Positions 3,125-14,563 of a stretch of DNA of 38,488 nucleotides are shown piece after piece. Origin of the DNA: an uncultured Elusimicrobium sp. (GTDB lineage Bacteria; Elusimicrobiota; Elusimicrobia; Elusimicrobiales; Elusimicrobiaceae); the NCBI GenBank assembly GCA_902766765.1, contig CACXER010000054.1, positions 1 through 38,488 on the forward strand, in the 5' to 3' direction. Position 1 is the stretch's first letter, and each line of letters begins with the position of its first letter. The notes under the pieces are model-generated. The model searched no databases. It was not told the origin of the DNA and saw only the letters and a program-made list of their open reading frames with translations. Both the position numbers and the translations under genes were made by a program.

Positions 3125-3159
3125 AAAAGGCCCAAGCGAAAAATGGGCCTTTTGTTCCT
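3125..3159 (+). terminator. Rho-independent terminator after P1
   Basis: A perfect 10-bp stem (3125-3134 with 3144-3153) and a TTTTGTTCCTT tail, beginning 12 bases after the P1 stop. It separates P1 from the P2-P3-P4 run. The left arm contains the right copy of the 14-bp direct repeat (3124-3137). Confidence 0.75.
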
Positions 3160-3220
3160 TGTGAGGTGTTGGCATATATTACTAAAATATAAAGAACATC
3201 TATTTTTAAATTGTATTTTT

Positions 3221-5509
3221 ATGAAGAAAGTTATTCCAATTTTAGTGGGGGCGGGATTACTTGTCGCCTCGCCGTCAGAGGGGTATGCTCAACGAGGAAA
3301 AGGATTTTTATCGTCGGGGCCGGCGGTTGCGGGCCGTAAAAGTTGGCGCACGAAGAAAACACTTTCCAAAATTGGGCAACAGTACGGAAAGCATAATAAC
3401 GGCAATTATATTGCGGCTCAATTAAATAAAAATGTTACGATTGGTACCGTGGCCGCCAAGCACTTAAATTTGCAATCGCAGCCGGGGCTTATTACCGGCA
3501 AATGGAAAAAAGGTTGGCATGCGGCCGTTACGAATATGTTGCCGCAGGAGATCCGAGCCGATTTGCCTTTGCCATATGCGCAAGATATTCTTTTAGGTAA
3601 TTTACCGTTGGAAATCCTTTCGGATGTAGAAAAGGAAAATTTATTCCTTTCCCAGTTCCCTATTTTAGTATTGGAGGAAAACTGGGTGCCGACCAATTCC
3701 CAATGGGATTATGCCCTTCGGTATTACCACAGTGTGCTATTTGATAAACTCCCGGAAACCGAGCCGGCCGATGAACTCAATCGGTGGGCCAAAAAAATGG
3801 CGGCGATTACCAACTTGGGGTTTTTTGGAAAACTGGAACAGGGCCAATGGATAGAAGTAGCCGCCACGCAACAATTCCCGTTGGAATTGCAACCGTTTAC
3901 GGATTTGATTGTCATGCGGGCGTTGCTCAATATAGGGGAAGAATCTTTTATTGACGACTTTGTATACCATCGTTTAAGCGCCGTTGATAAAAAGGGCCGT
4001 CCGCTTAAATTGCCGGCGGTGTGGAATGATTTTCCGGATTGGGTATTGTCCTATATCCCGGAGGGCCGCATTGAACAACCGGCTCCGCCTGCAAAAAAGA
4101 GTGCGGATCAAACTACGTTGTTGCGACGGGTAAAAAATTATTTTCAGCGTCAAAAGGCGCGTTTAGTTAAACCAAAACCGAAACCGGGTGATGAGGCCTT
4201 GCAGTATGCTTTAGGCAGATATAACAGTTATAATATTTTGAATTTGGATTCGTCCCCGGAAATGACGCAACTGTATATGGAATTGCAACACGGGATGGTT
4301 GATAAATTTTCCGATTTGGTGTTCGGAAATTCCCCGAATTTGGTAGAACAATTGGAATATCGGCTTTCTCGCAGTTACGAAGATGCCCAACTGTTTAATG
4401 AACGGCAGGATTTGCCCGCTTTATTCCCATACGTATCCCGAGAATGGATTTACTGGGATTTGGAGGGGGGAGTAGAAAAATTGTATCCGAATGCAGCCAG
4501 ATTTTTACCGGATGAGTTGGTGCCACTTTACATGCTTATCAAACACAATTTGGAAGTACGGAAATGGTGGCCGATTGTTCAACAATGGCAGATAGACGTG
4601 TTGCAGGCCACGGAACAATTACAAAAAATTCAGGTGCCGGTAACGCACGATTCATCGTTGGATATACGCTGGTTGGCGGGGCAAATTACGCCGCAGATCC
4701 AGCATGTATTAGTTGGTGATACGGCCGCGGCTCCTACTTTTTTGAAAGATGTGTTTGAATTGGCACGCGAATTGCGTAAACGCTATCCGAACCGGGACAT
4801 TGTTTTGCTGAGTCAGCACGGTTTCGGGTTACCGGAGGGCGTGTCGGATGATCCGGAAGTCCGCCGGATGTGTAAATCTCAGCATGTGTTGAAGCATTTG
4901 GTACAAGCCGAAAAAGATGGCGTGTTGGCTCAAACTGTACGCGACCAATATATTCAAACCGAGTTGTTGCGTGATCCTTTTTATGAGAATTCCACGGGGC
5001 TCCCCACCTTGGCGGCATTTGAAGAACCGGCCTCGTTAAATGGTGCCGGAGGGAGATTGGGACAGGAGCGTTTTGCGGAAACTTTTGAAGGTTTACGTTT
5101 GGTTTCGGATGCTTACGTGGAGCAGTTGGAAGCATTACGCGATAAACACCCCGATGCACTATTTATTGTGGCGGCCGATGCCAGACAAGTGGATTATGCG
5201 GTTCCTTATTCGTTAGGTAGTTATTTGGCTGGGCCGGACACGTATGTGGCGCTGCTGGGGGTACAACGATTTAGTTCGATATTGGATGCAAAGTCGCTCA
5301 GTTTGTTTGAACGGAATTTTTATCCCTTTGAAATGACGCGCGTGTTGCGAAGCGGACAGTTCGGTTCAAACGGCCCGGAAGATGCTCGCTTTTTGTTTGA
5401 TAGAGTATTGCAATTTAAGGGCGATGTGCCCACGGGTGAATTTGGTCATCCGGTTCGGGCTTCGTGGTTAGTTGGGTTTGATGTACGTATCAACCGATCG
5501 ATGGAGTAG
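3221..5509 (+). CDS. Secreted Tiki/ChaN-fold paralog P2, active-site motifs lost
   Basis: 762 residues from the ATG at 3221. An upstream in-frame ATG at 3143 lies inside the P1 terminator hairpin, and only the 3221 start gives a clean signal peptide (MKKVIPILVGAGLLVAS...GYA|QRGKG). No clear Shine-Dalgarno precedes it. Layout matches P1: a basic linker, a P1/P2-specific block (residues about 118-460, with LPYAQDILLGNLPLE, NLGFFG, FPLELQPFTDLI and RYNSYNILNLD) and the shared C-terminal domain (about 420-762). A Lys/Pro-rich insertion (about 285-325) is unique to P2. The motif positions that are GEVH and GNAH in P3 read GDTA (499-502) and DARQ (653-656), so both are lost. The terminal strand is VGFDVRI. 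P3 begins 10 bp downstream, so P2-P3-P4 look like one operon. No function is known to me. Confidence 0.75.
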   Translation: MKKVIPILVGAGLLVASPSEGYAQRGKGFLSSGPAVAGRKSWRTKKTLSKIGQQYGKHNNGNYIAAQLNKNVTIGTVAAKHLNLQSQPGLITGKWKKGWHAAVTNMLPQEIRADLPLPYAQDILLGNLPLEILSDVEKENLFLSQFPILVLEENWVPTNSQWDYALRYYHSVLFDKLPETEPADELNRWAKKMAAITNLGFFGKLEQGQWIEVAATQQFPLELQPFTDLIVMRALLNIGEESFIDDFVYHRLSAVDKKGRPLKLPAVWNDFPDWVLSYIPEGRIEQPAPPAKKSADQTTLLRRVKNYFQRQKARLVKPKPKPGDEALQYALGRYNSYNILNLDSSPEMTQLYMELQHGMVDKFSDLVFGNSPNLVEQLEYRLSRSYEDAQLFNERQDLPALFPYVSREWIYWDLEGGVEKLYPNAARFLPDELVPLYMLIKHNLEVRKWWPIVQQWQIDVLQATEQLQKIQVPVTHDSSLDIRWLAGQITPQIQHVLVGDTAAAPTFLKDVFELARELRKRYPNRDIVLLSQHGFGLPEGVSDDPEVRRMCKSQHVLKHLVQAEKDGVLAQTVRDQYIQTELLRDPFYENSTGLPTLAAFEEPASLNGAGGRLGQERFAETFEGLRLVSDAYVEQLEALRDKHPDALFIVAADARQVDYAVPYSLGSYLAGPDTYVALLGVQRFSSILDAKSLSLFERNFYPFEMTRVLRSGQFGSNGPEDARFLFDRVLQFKGDVPTGEFGHPVRASWLVGFDVRINRSME

Positions 5510-5519
5510 GAGTAGAAAT

Positions 5520-6752
5520 ATGCGTTGTTGGAAATTTTTATTTATTTTATTATGTTTTAGTGGTGTGATGGCCTACGGACAGAGAATGCCGTTTAAGGTA
5601 AATGCTAAGCCATCTGTCCATGTAGGGCATCATGCACAAAGTAAGAAGTCCAAGGCCTCCAAGCGCTTGGCGGCGTTGTCCCCTGCGCAGTTGTCTGAAC
5701 GTGTGCAAACTACGTACCGCCGTGCTAAAAAAATGCAAGATCATTACCCGGAAGTGATAGACTGGGGCGGACCGAGCAGGCAGTATATGCCGAGTTCTTC
5801 TCCGTTGACGCCGGATGCGCTCAAGTTTGCTAAATTAAATCCGAAGATCTTATATCCGCACTTGCCTGTATTATCGGCAGAACAATTAGCCCAATGCTTT
5901 TTAATACAGCATAATTTGGAACTTGTCAAATGGATGCCTAAACAGGAAGAATTACGAAAGTATGTGCAAGAGCATATGTCCTTATTGCGAGCCCATCAAG
6001 TGAAAGTTCCTGTGGCGGCACATCAAGAAATGGCTTGGCTGGCCCGGCAAGTATCACCGGAAACACAATATTTGCTACTTGGGGAAGTCCATGCACCCGG
6101 CATTGGGGACACGTTACCTGATTTGTTGCGCGAATTACGGCGTATGCAAAAGGACCGTCAGATTTTCTTATTTACGGAATTTCTACCCGAACGGCAAGAA
6201 TGGGGGCACTTGGATGTCGGCACTTTGTATTTTCCGGATCAAAAGTCGATTTGGAATACCGCCTACCTCCAGCGTATTCCCGTTATTGGGTTAGAGCCCT
6301 ATTTTATCTATCAGACTCAGCCGCAACTGATGGAGCGGGATCCTGCCCACCAAGGCCGTACCATGCCGGGGAATAATATTTGGCAATCGTTAGCCGGGGT
6401 GCGTGTACGCAATCAGCGTTGGATGCAAATTTTGCAAGAATACCGCGCGCAATACCCCGAGGCCTTGTTTATTGTCTATGCCGGTAATGCACATGTATCG
6501 TATTCGGAACCTTATTCTTTGGGGAATCAGTTGGCCAAGCAAAATACGCTTGTGGCTTTACTATATCCCGAACAAGATATATGGCAGACGTCCGGTCGGG
6601 CTTCTGTTTTGACCAGTAAATTTGATGCTTGGACGGATGGTAAATTTGTTAACGATAATATCGTGCAATTTGACTTGCCGGTTTTTTCGCGTGTCGTTGG
6701 ATTTGATATTCGTATCCGGCTTCCCGGAACGGTGTTTGTAATTGATGAATAA
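5520..6752 (+). CDS. Secreted Tiki/ChaN-fold paralog P3, motifs intact
   Basis: 410 residues from the ATG at 5520. I chose this over the in-frame ATG at 5472, which overlaps P2, because it has GGAG/AGGAG upstream and opens a signal peptide (MRCWKFLFILLCFSGVMAYG|QR). It lacks the large N-terminal block of P1/P2 and goes from a Lys/Ser-rich linker to the shared domain (about 110-410). The superfamily hallmarks are complete: LLLGEVH (G188, E189, H191), a second acidic strand FTEFLPE (E220), IPVIGLEP (253-260) and YAGNAHVSY (G322, H325). This is the pattern of ChaN (haem-binding uptake), TraB and Tiki (metalloprotease-like) proteins, so this member could bind haem or metal or be a hydrolase. Which of these applies cannot be told from the sequence. 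It ends VGFDIRI plus 13 residues. Confidence 0.75.
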   Translation: MRCWKFLFILLCFSGVMAYGQRMPFKVNAKPSVHVGHHAQSKKSKASKRLAALSPAQLSERVQTTYRRAKKMQDHYPEVIDWGGPSRQYMPSSSPLTPDALKFAKLNPKILYPHLPVLSAEQLAQCFLIQHNLELVKWMPKQEELRKYVQEHMSLLRAHQVKVPVAAHQEMAWLARQVSPETQYLLLGEVHAPGIGDTLPDLLRELRRMQKDRQIFLFTEFLPERQEWGHLDVGTLYFPDQKSIWNTAYLQRIPVIGLEPYFIYQTQPQLMERDPAHQGRTMPGNNIWQSLAGVRVRNQRWMQILQEYRAQYPEALFIVYAGNAHVSYSEPYSLGNQLAKQNTLVALLYPEQDIWQTSGRASVLTSKFDAWTDGKFVNDNIVQFDLPVFSRVVGFDIRIRLPGTVFVIDE

Positions 6753-6775
6753 TTGTTTGAACTGAGAAGGAAAAT

Positions 6776-7972
6776 ATGAAGAAGATAGTAGTTTTATTGT
6801 TGGCTGTCAGTTGTTTGCTAGGAGTTTGTGCGGGGGATATGTATGCCCAGAAAGGACGGATTCACAGATATCGCGCCCAAGGGAAAAAATACAAAAAACC
6901 GTCCCGTCCCGAAAAGCGAGCCAAGTCACATCCTTTAACCAACTTTCGCCAGGCCAGTACAATTACTGCCCAGGAAACAGAGGCAGGACTGCAACTTGGC
7001 GATTTCGTTCCGCCGGCCTCGCAATTTACGATAGGGAAGAGAAAATCGGTGTATGAGCCGTTAGCGGGTTTGCGTTCGCATGCGCTGTATCCTCAATCCA
7101 ACTTGCCAAGTACGCAAGAATTGGAGGAATACTTTTTAAATCAGCATAACTCGGAAATTGTAAAATGGATGCCTATTTTACAAGCCCATCAAAAAGCGTT
7201 GGAGGAAAATTTACCGCAGTTGCGTGAAGCCCAACAAATAATAGACCATCCCGCTCGCCTGGATATGAAATGGCTGGCAGGGCAACTTCCCGACGAGGCC
7301 CGCTATTTGCTGTTGGGAGAAAAAGACCACGGTGTATACGCGGTACACCAACAAGTCAAATATTTGCTGGGAGAGTTACACCGCCGTTATCCGCACCGGA
7401 AGATTATTCTATTTACGGAATTTTTACCTCAAGGCCGCTCGTGGATATATGCGGCGCGTTATCCCGGCTTGTGGGGGTATTTGCCCTTATTTTTAGCCGG
7501 GCAAAAAGTGCGTATTCCGGTAGTCGGTTTGGAACCGAAGTTTGTATGTGAAACCCAACGGACGATGGTGGAAGATCCGGAGCAACAAACCGGGGGACTG
7601 ATGTGGGCGTCCATTGAGGGGGTTCGTATCCGCAATGAAAGATGGCTCGCACGTTTGGAAGCGGCCCGCCGTCAATATCCCGATGCATTGTTCGTAGTCT
7701 ATACCGGGGCCGGCCACGTAGATTATAACGAGCCCTATTCATTGGGCCGTTCGCTACAAGGGCCGCAAACACAAGTGGTGTTGTTCCATCCCAGATATCG
7801 GGTAGAAAACGGACGGCTCAAAGACTTGATTACGCCGTTTGATATGGTAACCCAAGGAGAATTTTCTGACCGCATTGTACGGTTTAGTTCGGATGAAATG
7901 GCCAAATTAGCCGGATTTGATATTCAAATCGGTGTACCGGAGTTATTAGAAACGATGTTCTTTGATGAGTAA
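6776..7972 (+). CDS. Secreted Tiki/ChaN/erythromycin-esterase-like paralog P4
   Basis: 398 residues, 23 bp after P3, with GAGAAGG upstream. The signal peptide is MKKIVVLLLAVSCLLGVCAG..MYA|QK, followed by a Lys/Arg-rich linker (27-52). The shared domain spans about 100-398. Its first motif is GEKDHG (181-186): the His is one residue later than in P3's GEVH, matching the GE-xx-HG spacing of erythromycin-esterase-like proteins. The second motif is intact (TGAGHVDY, G311-H314), as are FTEFLP (E215) and IPVVGLEP (247-254). It also has extra His residues near the first motif (H191). The C-terminal strand is AGFDIQI. It is probably the last gene of the P2-P4 operon, which ends at the terminator at 7994-8024. 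Activity or substrate cannot be assigned. Confidence 0.75.
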   Translation: MKKIVVLLLAVSCLLGVCAGDMYAQKGRIHRYRAQGKKYKKPSRPEKRAKSHPLTNFRQASTITAQETEAGLQLGDFVPPASQFTIGKRKSVYEPLAGLRSHALYPQSNLPSTQELEEYFLNQHNSEIVKWMPILQAHQKALEENLPQLREAQQIIDHPARLDMKWLAGQLPDEARYLLLGEKDHGVYAVHQQVKYLLGELHRRYPHRKIILFTEFLPQGRSWIYAARYPGLWGYLPLFLAGQKVRIPVVGLEPKFVCETQRTMVEDPEQQTGGLMWASIEGVRIRNERWLARLEAARRQYPDALFVVYTGAGHVDYNEPYSLGRSLQGPQTQVVLFHPRYRVENGRLKDLITPFDMVTQGEFSDRIVRFSSDEMAKLAGFDIQIGVPELLETMFFDE

Positions 7973-8082: not shown

Positions 8083-8115
8083 TTGCACATACTCATTTTA
8101 CAAGGAGGAGTACGT

Positions 8116-8685
8116 ATGAAAAAGGAAAGTTGTTTGTTGGACTTTTTAAACGCAAAAGGTTTTACGCTAATAGAATTATTAGTGGTAGTGCTCATCATTG
8201 GTATTTTAGCGGCGGTGGCGATGCCGCAATATCAAAAAGCCGTAGAAAAATCTCGCGCCACGCAAGCCCTGGCGGTACTTAAAACAATCGGACAAGCGCA
8301 AGACGCGTATTACATGGCAAACGGGGAATATGCCCAATCGTTGGATGAATTGCCCGTAGATATTTCGTGGACGGGAACGGAAAAATGGACCGCAAGTAAT
8401 TATCCTACCTACTCTAACGGGCAATGGTCTTTGCAAGTGGTTCGTTGGACGCCGACCACTTGTGGGATCTATATGGGCCGGTTGACCGGTAAATATGCGG
8501 GAGCGGGATTTATTTATTGGCTTAAAAATCCTTATGATGATATTGAGGAAGGAACTCTGTCTTGTGCCGAACGTTTATCCAATGGGTTGACGTATAACGG
8601 TGTTAGTGGCAGTTATTGTGGAAAAGTTATACAGGTTTTCGGTAACCGGATAAATGTAAGTGCATTGAATGTTTGGCGCATGTAG
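8116..8685 (+). CDS. Type IV pilin-like protein a (G|F prepilin leader)
   Basis: 189 residues from the ATG at 8116, preceded by AAGGAGG; the earlier in-frame ATG at 8083 overlaps the promoter. A 15-residue leader rich in Lys and Cys ends in AKG|FTLIE, a class III signal for prepilin peptidase cleavage after Gly and N-methylation of Phe, with Glu at +5. The hydrophobic assembly helix is followed by the usual YQKAVEKSRATQAL, and then YYMANGEYAQSLDEL, a motif shared by all five window pilins. The C-terminal head is unique, with three mature Cys that could form a D-region disulfide. The protein may be a major or minor pilin or a type II secretion pseudopilin; no assembly genes are nearby. It is monocistronic with its own promoter. 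Confidence 0.85.
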   Translation: MKKESCLLDFLNAKGFTLIELLVVVLIIGILAAVAMPQYQKAVEKSRATQALAVLKTIGQAQDAYYMANGEYAQSLDELPVDISWTGTEKWTASNYPTYSNGQWSLQVVRWTPTTCGIYMGRLTGKYAGAGFIYWLKNPYDDIEEGTLSCAERLSNGLTYNGVSGSYCGKVIQVFGNRINVSALNVWRM

Positions 8686-8706: not shown

Positions 8707-9171
8707 TTAATTCATTCCCCATGTTCCTGCTGTTAAATACGTGGCAAACGCAAGCCATAGTCCGTACGGTGCCAGCAGCCACGCAGCAGTGCGGTTGATT
8801 TGCCAAAAAGCGCGGAATAAAAATCCCAGTTCTGTCAGCATGGCTACAATTAAAATCAGCCCGCCCGTCAAACTGTGTGCCCCGAAAAATACCGGAGTCC
8901 AACACGCATTTAACGCCAGTTGCCCTACAAATAACATCATCGCATGTCCGTGTATTTTTTCGCGGAATGTCAAAAAAGCACTCGTCCCCAATAAAATATA
9001 TAGCGCGCCCCATACAAGACTAAATAAAAAATCCGGCGGCGTTAGCGGCGGGTGGGCTAAGGTGCGGTACCACGCCATATTGTTAAACACATAGGGGATG
9101 CCGAATAAACCGGGCAGTTGGCAAATTACCAGCCAAACGACGAATTTTACTAACATAGTTCCGTTTTTCAT
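8707..9171 (-). CDS. tspO: TspO/MBR (tryptophan-rich sensory protein) family membrane protein
   Basis: 154 residues with five predicted transmembrane helices, the typical TspO length and topology. Family landmarks are present: WY..LAHPPLTPPD (residues about 34-48), F..VWGALYILLG, NACWTPVFFG (the N..W..FF motif) and APYGLW.AFATYL near the C-terminus. TspO proteins bind porphyrins or cholesterol-like ligands in the outer or inner membrane and influence tetrapyrrole and stress responses. The role in this organism is unknown. It is convergent with pilin a (22 bp between stops) and has no strong Shine-Dalgarno before its ATG. Confidence 0.85.
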   Translation of the reverse strand: MKNGTMLVKFVVWLVICQLPGLFGIPYVFNNMAWYRTLAHPPLTPPDFLFSLVWGALYILLGTSAFLTFREKIHGHAMMLFVGQLALNACWTPVFFGAHSLTGGLILIVAMLTELGFLFRAFWQINRTAAWLLAPYGLWLAFATYLTAGTWGMN

Positions 9172-9256: not shown

Positions 9257-9295
9257 AATCATACACGCCCACTGGGCGTATTTTGAGGAATTTTT

Positions 9296-9679
9296 ATGGA
9301 TACCAAACTCATTAAAGAAGTAACCGATTGGTTGAAAACCACCGATTTAGCCGAATTTTGTTATGAAAAAGACGGCAACTGTATTGAAGTAAAAACCCAA
9401 GAAGCCCTGCCCGAGCCGGCTGCGTTTGCTTGTTCGCTTACGGCGGTAACGGCTCCCGCTATCGGCATTTATCACGCCGCGGATAAAGGGCAAAATATTG
9501 CCCTTACCGAAGGTCAACTCATCGAACAAGGGGCGCCGTTGGGTGTTGTGGAAACGGTTTCCAAAAAGCATAAAATTACTGCGCCGGTTTCCGGTAAATT
9601 GCGCGTGATTACCGTGCGAGAAGGGGCCGTCGTAGAATTTGGTTTGCCACTCTTTTTTATTGAACCGCGGGAGTGTTAA
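9296..9679 (+). CDS. accB: Biotin carboxyl carrier-like protein lacking the biotin lysine
   Basis: 127 residues with the AccB layout: a short N-terminal helix, a Pro/Ala linker (about 36-50), then a biotinyl/lipoyl beta-barrel (about 51-125; TAPAIGIYH...EGQLIEQGAPLGVVET...ITAPVSGKL...VVEFGLPLFFIEP). It aligns without gaps to E. coli BCCP through this region, but the AMKM biotinylation motif is replaced by TVSKKHK (87-93). The acceptor lysine position is Ser89, with Lys at 90 and 91. It is shorter than E. coli AccB (156). The next gene is accC, starting directly after the stop (TAA-ATG), so it should be the carrier subunit. Either an adjacent Lys is modified, or this copy does not carry biotin and a second carrier exists elsewhere. 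Confidence 0.75.
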   Translation: MDTKLIKEVTDWLKTTDLAEFCYEKDGNCIEVKTQEALPEPAAFACSLTAVTAPAIGIYHAADKGQNIALTEGQLIEQGAPLGVVETVSKKHKITAPVSGKLRVITVREGAVVEFGLPLFFIEPREC

Positions 9680-11068
9680 ATGGGAACCGATTTGTCCTTT
9701 ACGCCTTTTCAAAAAGTACTTATTGCCAACCGTGGCGAAATCGCCCTGCGCATTATCCGCACGTTAAAAGAGATGAATATTAAATCGGTGGCTGTTTACT
9801 CACAGGCCGACCGTAACAGTTTGCATGTGCGCATGGCCGACGAAGCCGTTTGTATCGGCCCGGCCCGCTCTGCGCAAAGTTATTTAAATATAGACGCTAT
9901 TGTTACCGCCGCTAAATTGACCGGAGCCGATGCCGTTCACCCGGGGTATGGTTTTCTATCCGAAAATGCCGATTTTGCAAAAGCCGTTACCGAGGCCGGA
10001 ATTACTTTTATCGGGCCGGATGCCAATTCTATTTCTTTGTTAGGTGTTAAATCTACCGCGCGTGAAATTGCCGTCAAAGCCGGTGTGCCCGTTACCCCAG
10101 GCTCCGATGGAGTGGTTGGTAAAAATTACCACGCTATTGCACGCAAGATCGGTTTTCCCGTCATGATTAAAGCCGCACTGGGCGGTGGCGGAAAGGGAAT
10201 GCGCGCTTGCTTTAACGAAGAAGATTTAGACCGTATGATGTCCACGGCCCAGGCCGAGGCGCGCGCCAACTTTGGCGACGACCGCATGTATTTGGAAAAA
10301 CTCGTTTTGAATCCGCGCCACATTGAAGTCCAAGTGGCTGCCGATAATTACGGTAATGTGGTAGCATTTGCCGAGCGCGATTGCAGTTTGCAGCGTCGCC
10401 ACCAAAAATTAGTAGAGGAATCCCCCAGCCCGTTTGTGGACGCGGCTACCCGTGTTAAATTGCAAGAAGCCGCGTGCAAACTGATTGAGGCGGCCAACTA
10501 CCGGGGGGTTGGTACGGTGGAGTTTTTAATGGCGCCGACCAAAGAATTTTATTTCATGGAAGTAAATACCCGCTTGCAAGTGGAACATCCGGTAACGGAA
10601 GAAGTCTGCGGGCGGGATTTAGTCAAACTGCAAGTTCAAATTGCCCAAGGCGAAAAATTACCCTTTACCCAAAAAGAAGCCGCCGTTATCAAATGCCACG
10701 CGATCGAGCATCGTATCAACGCCGAGGATAGCGAGCATAATTTTGTGCCGTGCCCGGGTACGGTTTCGGAGTGGATTCCGTCGGGCGGGTTGGGCGTACG
10801 GGTGGATAGCCACGTATATGTCGGCTATGCAATTCCCACGTATTACGATAGTTTGATTGCTAAACTGATTGTAACGGCCCCCGAACGTCCCCAATTGTTG
10901 GCACGCAGCCGCCGCGCGCTAGGCGAATTTGTGGTCGGTGGTGTAAAAACCACGTTGCCGTTTCATAAGCGCATTTTAGATAATGCCGATTTTATTGCCG
11001 GAGATACCGACACCGGACTTATTGAGCGTATGCTCAAGCAAGAGAAGGAACATGAAAGCCAAAACTAA
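9680..11068 (+). CDS. accC: Biotin carboxylase subunit of acetyl-CoA carboxylase
   Basis: 462 residues (E. coli AccC 449). It catalyses ATP-dependent carboxylation of biotin on the carrier protein, the first half-reaction of malonyl-CoA synthesis. It has the N-terminal domain ([19 protein letters not shown]), the ATP-grasp glycine loop [10 protein letters not shown] (about 165-174), the [12 protein letters not shown] signature, and the catalytic segment [19 protein letters not shown]. It is adjacent to the accB-like gene, while accA and accD are not in the window. The 3' end overlaps rfaE2 by 17 bp, indicating a single mRNA. All catalytic signatures look intact, so the oddity in its partner is not simple decay of the locus. 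Confidence 0.93.
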
Positions 11069-14047: not shown

Positions 14048-14563
14048 ATGAAAAAGAAAAGTTGTTTGTCGGGCATTTTACGTACAAAAGGGTTTACGCT
14101 GATTGAACTCCTCGTAGTCGTACTCATCATCGGCATACTCGCCGCGGTAGCCGTGCCGCAATATCAAAAAGCGGTGGAAAAAGCACGGATGAGCGAAGCC
14201 ATTGGTATGTTATCCACTATTGCCAAAGCGCACCAAGTTTTTTATATGGCTAACGGGCGGTATGCTTTTTCTAATGACATTGGTTTATTAGATATAGAAG
14301 TTCCGGGAGAGGTAGATAATTCCTGGGGCACAGGGCGCATTCGTACCAAGTATTTTATTTATTCACCCAATGTGGCTACAGGAAATGGTCCGGGGCCCAT
14401 GTTGGCTTTTGCCCAACATGTTCCGCAAGAAGGTGTCGCAGAGATTTATCAATTATTTATTTCCCAAGCGGAGCCAAACCGGGTTCAATGTTCCTTGTAT
14501 GATGGGGCCAACGCTGTACAACGCAAATTGTGTCAAAAATTAAACGCTAAAGGCACGCTATAA
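14048..14563 (+). CDS. Type IV pilin-like protein b (G|F prepilin leader)
   Basis: 171 residues, with GGAGGG upstream of the ATG. The leader MKKKSCLSGILRTKG|F is 15 residues like that of pilin a, including the Ser-Cys-Leu segment. The assembly helix carries Glu at +5 and is followed by YQKAVEKARMSEAIGML and FYMANGRYAF. The head domain is short, with two Cys (both near the C-terminus). The assembly helix is the same as in pilin a while the head is unrelated in detail, as expected for duplicated pilin cassettes. It stands alone between the GNAT-fold gene and purB; nothing suggests co-transcription with either. Its product could be a pilin or a pseudopilin. Confidence 0.85.
   Translation: MKKKSCLSGILRTKGFTLIELLVVVLIIGILAAVAVPQYQKAVEKARMSEAIGMLSTIAKAHQVFYMANGRYAFSNDIGLLDIEVPGEVDNSWGTGRIRTKYFIYSPNVATGNGPGPMLAFAQHVPQEGVAEIYQLFISQAEPNRVQCSLYDGANAVQRKLCQKLNAKGTL

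What the first reader, a model, noticed from the sequence alone, without database searches (positions are those of the whole stretch)
9553..9583. AccB-like carrier without the biotinyl lysine next to an intact accC
Gapless comparison with E. coli BCCP puts Ser89 at the biotinylated Lys; the AMKM motif is TVSKKHK (87-93). The rest of the biotinyl barrel and AccC look intact. Either Lys90 or Lys91 is used, or the subunit is a non-biotinylated paralog with a structural or regulatory role, or malonyl-CoA is made with another carrier.
Basis: partly seen in the sequence, partly recalled or inferred. Interest (0 to 1): 0.58.

Follow-up and report, generated by a model that had tools for sequence, protein, structure and literature searches.

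The report
Biotin carrier protein without biotin lysine
A gut bacterium of the phylum Elusimicrobiota makes, right beside its only biotin carboxylase, a second biotin-carrier protein that has lost the lysine where biotin is attached but is otherwise well kept, which looks like a bacterial counterpart of the biotin-free helper subunits that plants use in fatty-acid synthesis.

Summary
Window 9296-9679 encodes a 127-aa AccB-like protein with Ser89 in the biotinyl-Lys column. Its stop codon abuts an intact accC, the only biotin carboxylase found in the genome.

It is neither an error nor decay. Homologues occur in 89 of 90 genomes of the family, nearly always directly before accC. In the window's genus position 89 is never Lys (0 of 65) and median dN/dS is 0.084. 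The genome also carries an unlinked AccB with EAMKVFNE, two BirA-type ligases and one carboxyltransferase.

Across the phylum the two AccBs form two clades (SH-aLRT 93 on a 72-column tree). The unlinked copy keeps AMK in 94 of 94. The accC-linked copy has lost Met-Lys in 55 of 99, including seven clean K-to-R/Q changes; the main lineage also shortened the linker (15-22 residues against 23-43).

Best explanation: after an old duplication the accC-linked AccB became a non-biotinylated assembly or regulatory subunit of the BC-BCCP complex, analogous to plant BADC. Absence of biotin at the canonical site is near certain for the window protein. Binding and direction of effect are inferred. No bacterial precedent turned up in seven literature searches.

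The parts
9296..9679 (+). accC-linked AccB paralogue without biotinyl lysine (127 aa, stop included)
9285..9289 (+). GAGGA, Shine-Dalgarno-like, 6 bases before the start codon
   Evidence: read from the sequence
9296..9403 (+). N-terminal domain, residues 1-36 (helix 3-13, strands 20-25 and 28-33), aligned end to end with the E. coli BCCP N-terminus
   Evidence: model; weak profile alignment to 4hr7_B residues 21-56, 7.0 bits; lowest pN/pS of the five regions
9404..9439 (+). short linker, residues 37-48 (shortened relative to AMK-bearing AccBs)
9440..9667 (+). biotinyl-type barrel, residues 49-124
9551..9571 (+). hairpin tip, residues 86-92 E-T-V-S-K-K-H in place of E-A-M-K-M-M-N; Ser89 (9560-9562) in the biotinyl-Lys column
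9669..9673 (+). GGGAG, Shine-Dalgarno-like site of accC inside the end of the upstream gene; TAA 9677-9679 then ATG 9680 (likely translational coupling)
   Evidence: read from the sequence
9680..11068 (+). accC, biotin carboxylase, 462 aa; only one found in the genome

Best explanation
An AccB duplication older than the phylum's diversification gave Elusimicrobiota one AccB beside accC and one elsewhere. The unlinked AccB is the working biotin carrier. The accC-linked one lost the need for biotin: several lineages only swapped the Lys for Arg or Gln, while the large lineage containing the window also replaced the tip motif and shortened the flexible linker. What was kept is the N-terminal domain, the barrel and the position in front of accC. 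The protein most likely binds AccC (and/or the true AccB) through these kept parts as a non-biotinylated structural subunit that organises the BC-BCCP complex, as plant BADC is reported to do. Shown: missing Lys, intact fold, purifying selection, linkage to accC, second AccB with AMK, repeated losses on one paralogue only. Inferred: binding to AccC/AccB and a positive assembly role.
For: Homologues in 89 of 90 family genomes, 51 of 51 high-quality ones. Of 90 family copies read, accC starts within 41 bases of the stop (or overlaps) in 87, is 1.2-1.8 kb downstream in 2 and off-contig in 1. Column 89: S 58, K 17, A 5, G 4, T 3, N 2, F 1, and no AMKM. Unlinked AccB present in 51 of 51 high-quality genomes, with EAMKVFNE in 30 of 30 genus copies read. 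Only one biotin carboxylase in the window's genome and one carboxyltransferase per family genome in most, so the accC-linked protein has no other obvious partner enzyme. Median dN/dS 0.084 over 97 genus pairs; the N-terminal domain is the most constrained region. Phylum tree without the motif columns: the two AccBs split on one branch, SH-aLRT 93. AMK kept in 94 of 94 unlinked and Met-Lys in 44 of 99 linked copies. All 48 linked copies with linkers of 22 or less lack Met-Lys; 0 of 44 Met-Lys copies are that short. Plant BADCs: 25-30% identical to BCCP, no biotin motif, reported as assembly glue (PMC11926652, passages).
Against: No binding or enzyme data. The N-terminal similarity to E. coli AccB is weak (7 bits), and BLASTP between the two AccBs of this genome aligns only the barrel (E 6e-4). 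22 of the 55 linked copies without Met-Lys still have a Lys in the column, 9 of 10 in family f2, so modification there is not excluded outside the window's genus. The tip S-[KQ]-K-H is itself fairly conserved in the genus (His92 61 of 65), hinting at a tip function the glue model does not need. The short linker arose once on the tree, so its link to motif loss cannot be tested statistically. In 17 of 87 linked copies outside the family no accC lay within the fetched flank (at most 1.5 kb).
Confidence: 0.6

Rival explanations
1. The protein is a competitive negative regulator: it takes the place of the biotinylated AccB on AccC and so lowers carboxylase activity, with the accC operon setting the ratio.
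For: Same anatomy as for the glue model. An inhibitory role was proposed for plant BADC (reported in PMC11926652, passages). Co-translation with AccC would set the ratio.
Against: Near-universal retention in small genomes (89 of 90) fits a needed part slightly better than a brake. The NMR authors in PMC11926652 argue against the inhibitory model for plants.
Confidence: 0.17
2. It is mainly an autoregulator or chaperone of accC expression (AccB is reported to regulate accBC in E. coli; recalled), not a lasting part of the enzyme.
For: Start-stop coupling with accC and high conservation of the N-terminal domain.
Against: The barrel is also under purifying selection and keeps its fold. No regulatory motif was tested.
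Confidence: 0.1
3. Another residue near the tip (Lys90, Lys91 or Lys93) is biotinylated or lipoylated, so the protein is still a carrier.
For: Lys at 90 in 41 of 65 and at 91 in 56 of 65 genus copies. Two BirA-type ligases in the genome, one of them short.
Against: Neither Lys is invariant in the genus, the Met flanks are gone, the linker is shortened. Recalled: shifting the Lys by one residue stops biotinylation of E. coli BCCP and lipoylation of lipoyl domains.
Confidence: 0.07
4. It is a decaying duplicate or an assembly/sequencing artefact without function.
For: The active-site residue is lost and a working copy exists.
Against: Median dN/dS 0.084, open frame and accC linkage across the genus copies; 89 of 90 genomes.
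Confidence: 0.02

Closest known systems
Plant BADC proteins (biotin attachment domain-containing; Arabidopsis BADC1-3)
   Same: BCCP-like proteins that lack the biotinylation motif and co-exist with true BCCPs and a biotin carboxylase; reported to bind BC and BCCP (PMC11926652, passages).
   Different: Plant genes for plastid proteins. The bacterial protein is joined to accC, about 127 aa with a short linker; orthology with BADC was not tested and an independent origin is more likely.
AccB / biotin carboxyl carrier protein (TIGR00531; E. coli 1bdo, 4hr7)
   Same: Order of domains, barrel fold (Z 14.3 and 14.0), accB-accC gene order.
   Different: Biotinyl Lys and both Met replaced, linker shortened; 41.9 bits against a cut-off of 115.2.
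Small non-catalytic subunit (AccE/epsilon) of actinobacterial acyl-CoA carboxylases, e.g. Thermobifida fusca
   Same: A non-catalytic subunit that helps assembly and activates catalysis; compared with BADC by its authors (PMC7835884, passages).
   Different: 8.7-kDa protein that binds the carboxyltransferase subunit rather than the BC subunit; no BCCP likeness was claimed in the passages read.
Unlinked AccB of the same genomes (EAMKV[FM]NE)
   Same: Paralogue with the same two-domain plan.
   Different: Keeps AMK in 94 of 94 copies and a 20-57-residue linker.

Membership tests
AccB (biotin carboxyl carrier protein of acetyl-CoA carboxylase) | biotinyl-type barrel fold | tested here: met
   Pfam 35.3 bits; Z 14.3 to 1bdo over 79 residues, rmsd 2.2
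AccB (biotin carboxyl carrier protein of acetyl-CoA carboxylase) | biotinylated Lys in A-M-K-M context | tested here: not met
   T-V-S-K; Ser in the Lys column; 0 of 65 genus copies have Lys there
AccB (biotin carboxyl carrier protein of acetyl-CoA carboxylase) | NCBIfam TIGR00531 equivalog cut-off | tested here: not met
   41.9 of 115.2 bits; note that the AMK-bearing AccB of the same genome also falls short, 103.6
AccB (biotin carboxyl carrier protein of acetyl-CoA carboxylase) | N-terminal domain as in E. coli BCCP | tested here: inconclusive
   start-to-start alignment with 4hr7_B but 7.0 bits only; predicted helix plus hairpin
AccB (biotin carboxyl carrier protein of acetyl-CoA carboxylase) | carries biotin in the cell | not testable with these tools
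   needs streptavidin blot or mass spectrometry
BADC (non-biotinylated BCCP-like subunit of plant heteromeric ACCase) | BCCP-like protein without the biotinylation motif | tested here: met
BADC (non-biotinylated BCCP-like subunit of plant heteromeric ACCase) | co-exists with a biotinylatable BCCP and a biotin carboxylase | tested here: met
   unlinked AccB EAMKVFNE and single AccC
BADC (non-biotinylated BCCP-like subunit of plant heteromeric ACCase) | binds BC and BCCP and changes ACCase activity | not testable with these tools
   no interaction data
BADC (non-biotinylated BCCP-like subunit of plant heteromeric ACCase) | common descent with plant BADC | not tested
   no BADC sequences were fetched

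The most novel reading that the evidence does not exclude
Bacteria have a built-in, biotin-free BCCP subunit: in Elusimicrobiota an old AccB paralogue fixed beside accC has repeatedly (about seven times on the best tree, at least three on strongly supported branches) given up its biotinyl lysine while staying an integral, near-universal part of the BC-BCCP complex. This would be a bacterial parallel to plant BADC that evolved on its own and can be caught at several stages (AMK; AMR/AMQ; motif and linker gone).
Probability: 0.6. Interest if true: 0.72.

Novelty: new variant of a known kind. Interest (0 to 1): 0.62.

Why it matters
Whether the dead BCCPs of plants are assembly glue or brakes is disputed (PMC11926652, passages). 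A bacterial system with one carboxylase, one live and one dead carrier, and close relatives in which the linked copy still has AMK or has only changed to AMR/AMQ, would let that question be tested by simple reconstitution and comparison. It would also show that loss of the cofactor site in one of two carrier paralogues is a recurrent route to a structural subunit. For annotation, tools that call this gene 'AccB' would credit the wrong gene with the carrier function in this phylum.

Tried and rejected
Sequencing error or frameshift: rejected by 65 genus copies with open frames. Pseudogene: rejected by dN/dS and retention. Biotin on Lys90/91: disfavoured by variation at both sites. A second biotin carboxylase as partner: none found in the window's genome, with the caveat that the assembly is 87% complete. 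Separate AccA/AccD: not found; the only Carboxyl_trans hit is one 534-aa protein nearest TIGR01117 mmdA, below its cut-off. A statistical link between short linker and motif loss: not testable, one origin on the tree. Literature: no paper on a bacterial AccB paralogue lacking the lysine, nor on this gene in Elusimicrobiota, came up in seven searches of an open-access library; an eighth search on E. coli ACC filaments gave no useful paper. For most listed papers only the listing was seen. No relatives outside the phylum were listed: the named-genome scan used one peptide pattern and kept 80 of 116 confirmed loci; titles of those 80 name Elusimicrobiota or 'uncultured bacterium'. This is weak evidence on wider spread. 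The promoter and terminator scan gave nothing that bears on the operon.

What was left out of counts. A1 used 27 of the 90 family copies. 113 of 119 further matches were fetched; six short partial matches were skipped. The phylum set is 94 genomes: a linked-clade AccB was found in 87 (none in G090, G091, G095, G100, G161, G171, G236) and an unlinked one in 86 (none in G106, G164, G170, G182, G210, G236, G298, G338). 12 family linked copies and 8 family unlinked copies were added for the tree. Clade labels were first set by motif (Met-Lys plus NE, ND or TE just after it); the tree left out those columns. The 72-column tree has 103 of 191 inner branches under 80% support. One genus copy (contig end) was dropped from the 66.

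Full report
What is there. Window 9296-9679 (+) encodes 127 residues: an N-terminal helix and hairpin (residues 1-36), a short linker and a biotinyl-type barrel (49-124). The stop codon TAA 9677-9679 is followed at once by the ATG of accC (9680-11068), with a GGGAG inside the upstream gene. The protein meets Pfam Biotin_lipoyl (35.3 bits) but not the NCBIfam BCCP equivalog (41.9 of 115.2). AccC passes the accC model and aligns along its length with solved biotin carboxylases. The hairpin tip reads E-T-V-S-K-K-H where E. coli has E-A-M-K-M-M-N, so Ser89 stands in the column of the biotinylated Lys. AlphaFold2 on 47 sequences gives mean pLDDT 86.4. The barrel matches E. coli BCCP (1bdo Z 14.3; 4hr7_G Z 14.0) and Arabidopsis BCCP1 (9a87 Z 13.5).

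The genome. Biotin_lipoyl hits in the 1.36-Mb, 87%-complete assembly are four: a protein read as the alpha subunit of a sodium-pumping oxaloacetate decarboxylase (EAMKM, followed by a membrane subunit), a lone 179-aa AccB with EAMKVFNE, the window protein, and GcvH (the names OadA/OadB and GcvH are my reading of the sequences). There is one biotin carboxylase, in the window, and one carboxyltransferase, a 534-aa single chain nearest mmdA (693 bits, below that model's cut-off of 998.8), with no separate AccA. Two proteins of 234 and 194 aa pass the birA_ligase domain cut-off. So the cell has the parts of one acyl-CoA carboxylase with a live carrier encoded elsewhere, and a dead-looking carrier beside accC.

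Conservation. In the family, 89 of 90 genomes carry a homologue, 51 of 51 of the high-quality ones. I read 90 copies: G045 has two, and the one of G077 is in pieces. accC is within 41 bases or overlapping in 87, 1.2 and 1.8 kb downstream in two, and beyond the contig end in one (open-frame starts, not start codons, define the overlaps). The Lys column holds S 58, K 17, A 5, G 4, T 3, N 2, F 1. The 17 Lys are outside the window's genus and none stands in A-M-K-M. In the 65 full-length genus copies the column is never Lys, Lys90 is in 41 and Lys91 in 56. Among 97 genus pairs of moderate divergence the median dN/dS is 0.084 (maximum 0.298); pooled pN/pS is lowest in the N-terminal domain (0.181) and highest at the tip (0.302) and the first half of the barrel (0.297). 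The unlinked AccB search had matches in 88 of 90 family genomes at E 1e-3. By my reading of that list nine genomes lack a strong match, seven of them matching only the linked paralogue; all nine lie outside the high-quality set, so 51 of 51 high-quality genomes have it. All 30 genus copies fetched read EAMKVFNE.

Phylum. A profile of the linked protein found matches in 333 of 340 Elusimicrobiota genomes, usually two per genome. I then read 94 genomes outside the family, mostly one per genus. A maximum-likelihood tree of 194 AccBs on 72 barrel columns, with the motif columns taken out, splits linked and unlinked copies on one branch with SH-aLRT 93; the E. coli sequence falls on the linked side. 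The unlinked clade has AMK in 94 of 94. The linked clade has Met-Lys in 44 of 99; 22 have Lys without Met, and 33 no Lys, of which seven are AMR, TMR or AMQ with the rest of the tip unchanged (G166, G241, G308, G321, G330, G331, G335). Met-Lys changes state at least 7 times on the tree, 3 on strongly supported branches. Six of those seven have an AMK-type (Met-Lys) copy as nearest neighbour on the tree; G308's nearest is G321, itself AMR, followed by Met-Lys-bearing G305. accC lies within 200 bases of 60 of the 87 linked copies outside the family and further off on the same strand in 10; 17 have none in the fetched flank. None of 93 unlinked copies has accC in the fetched flank. In several families a zinc-ribbon-like, proline-rich protein gene lies between (the description is my reading).

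Linker. Between the N-terminal domain and the barrel, E. coli has 49 residues, unlinked copies 20-57 (median 39), linked Met-Lys copies 23-43 (31), the R/Q copies 24-44 (37), and linked copies without the motif 15-22. No Met-Lys copy is as short as 22. The shortening arose once on the tree, so it is one event, not a tested correlation. It reads as a series: carrier; carrier with the Lys swapped; then motif and swinging arm gone.

Reading. A protein that keeps its N-terminal domain and barrel and sits before accC, but drops the cofactor site and the arm that moves it, is best explained as a non-biotinylated subunit that works by binding. Its likeliest partner is AccC, then the true AccB. Plant BADC is the known precedent: 25-30% identical to BCCP, no biotin motif, reported as glue by reconstitution and as inhibitor by others (PMC11926652, passages only). 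The actinobacterial AccE subunit is a precedent for a non-catalytic activator (PMC7835884, passages only). A fused BC-BCCP in Chloroflexus shows another way to tie the two, with K553A abolishing biotinylation (PMC11077971, passages). PMC3199775 (passages) left BCCPs out of its phylogenies because they are short. None of the papers seen describes this protein.

What is not shown. No binding, no stoichiometry, no activity, no direct proof that biotin is absent. Family f2 keeps a Lys in the column in 9 of 10 copies, though without the Met flanks and with the short linker, so modification there stays open. The tip S-[KQ]-K-H is quite conserved in the genus and may have a job of its own.

A practical lead. 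One family genome is a single contig of 1,643,562 bases (G067), the size I recall for the cultured Elusimicrobium minutum Pei191; its linked AccB has E-T-S-A-K-K at the tip (L074). Another single-contig genome of 1,588,979 bases (G292) may be cultured Endomicrobium proavitum and keeps EAMKII. Both names are recalled guesses. If right, the comparison can be done in pure cultures.

Noticed in passing
window 3143-7972 (+): Three consecutive genes (788, 426, 398 aa) for exported-looking proteins that share stretches (e.g. near 'EPYSLG' and 'VGFDI.I') and have no Pfam match at E 0.001: an uncharacterised tandem family.
   Followed up: partly
window 8083-8685 and 14048-14563; also beside the carboxyltransferase gene in L415: Type IV pilin-like proteins with near-identical N-termini ([31 protein letters not shown]) and divergent bodies, several in one genome.
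   Followed up: partly
G000:C42:16302-16661 and G000:C59:12233-12616 (L036, L037): Two BirA-type biotin ligases of 234 and 194 aa, the second lacking the C-terminal part of the model; which AccB each serves is unknown.
   Followed up: partly
G000:C50:27859-28794 (L421): The only Acyl_transf_1 (malonyl-transferase type) match lies in a 2540-aa open frame, suggesting a giant type I fatty acid or polyketide synthase as the user of malonyl-CoA.
   Followed up: no
L248, L237, L297, L090 downstream of the linked AccB: In other families a gene for a double zinc-ribbon, proline-rich, probably membrane-anchored protein lies between the AccB paralogue and accC or directly follows the paralogue.
   Followed up: no
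window 8707-9171 (-): TspO/MBR family gene divergent from the accB-accC pair.
   Followed up: no
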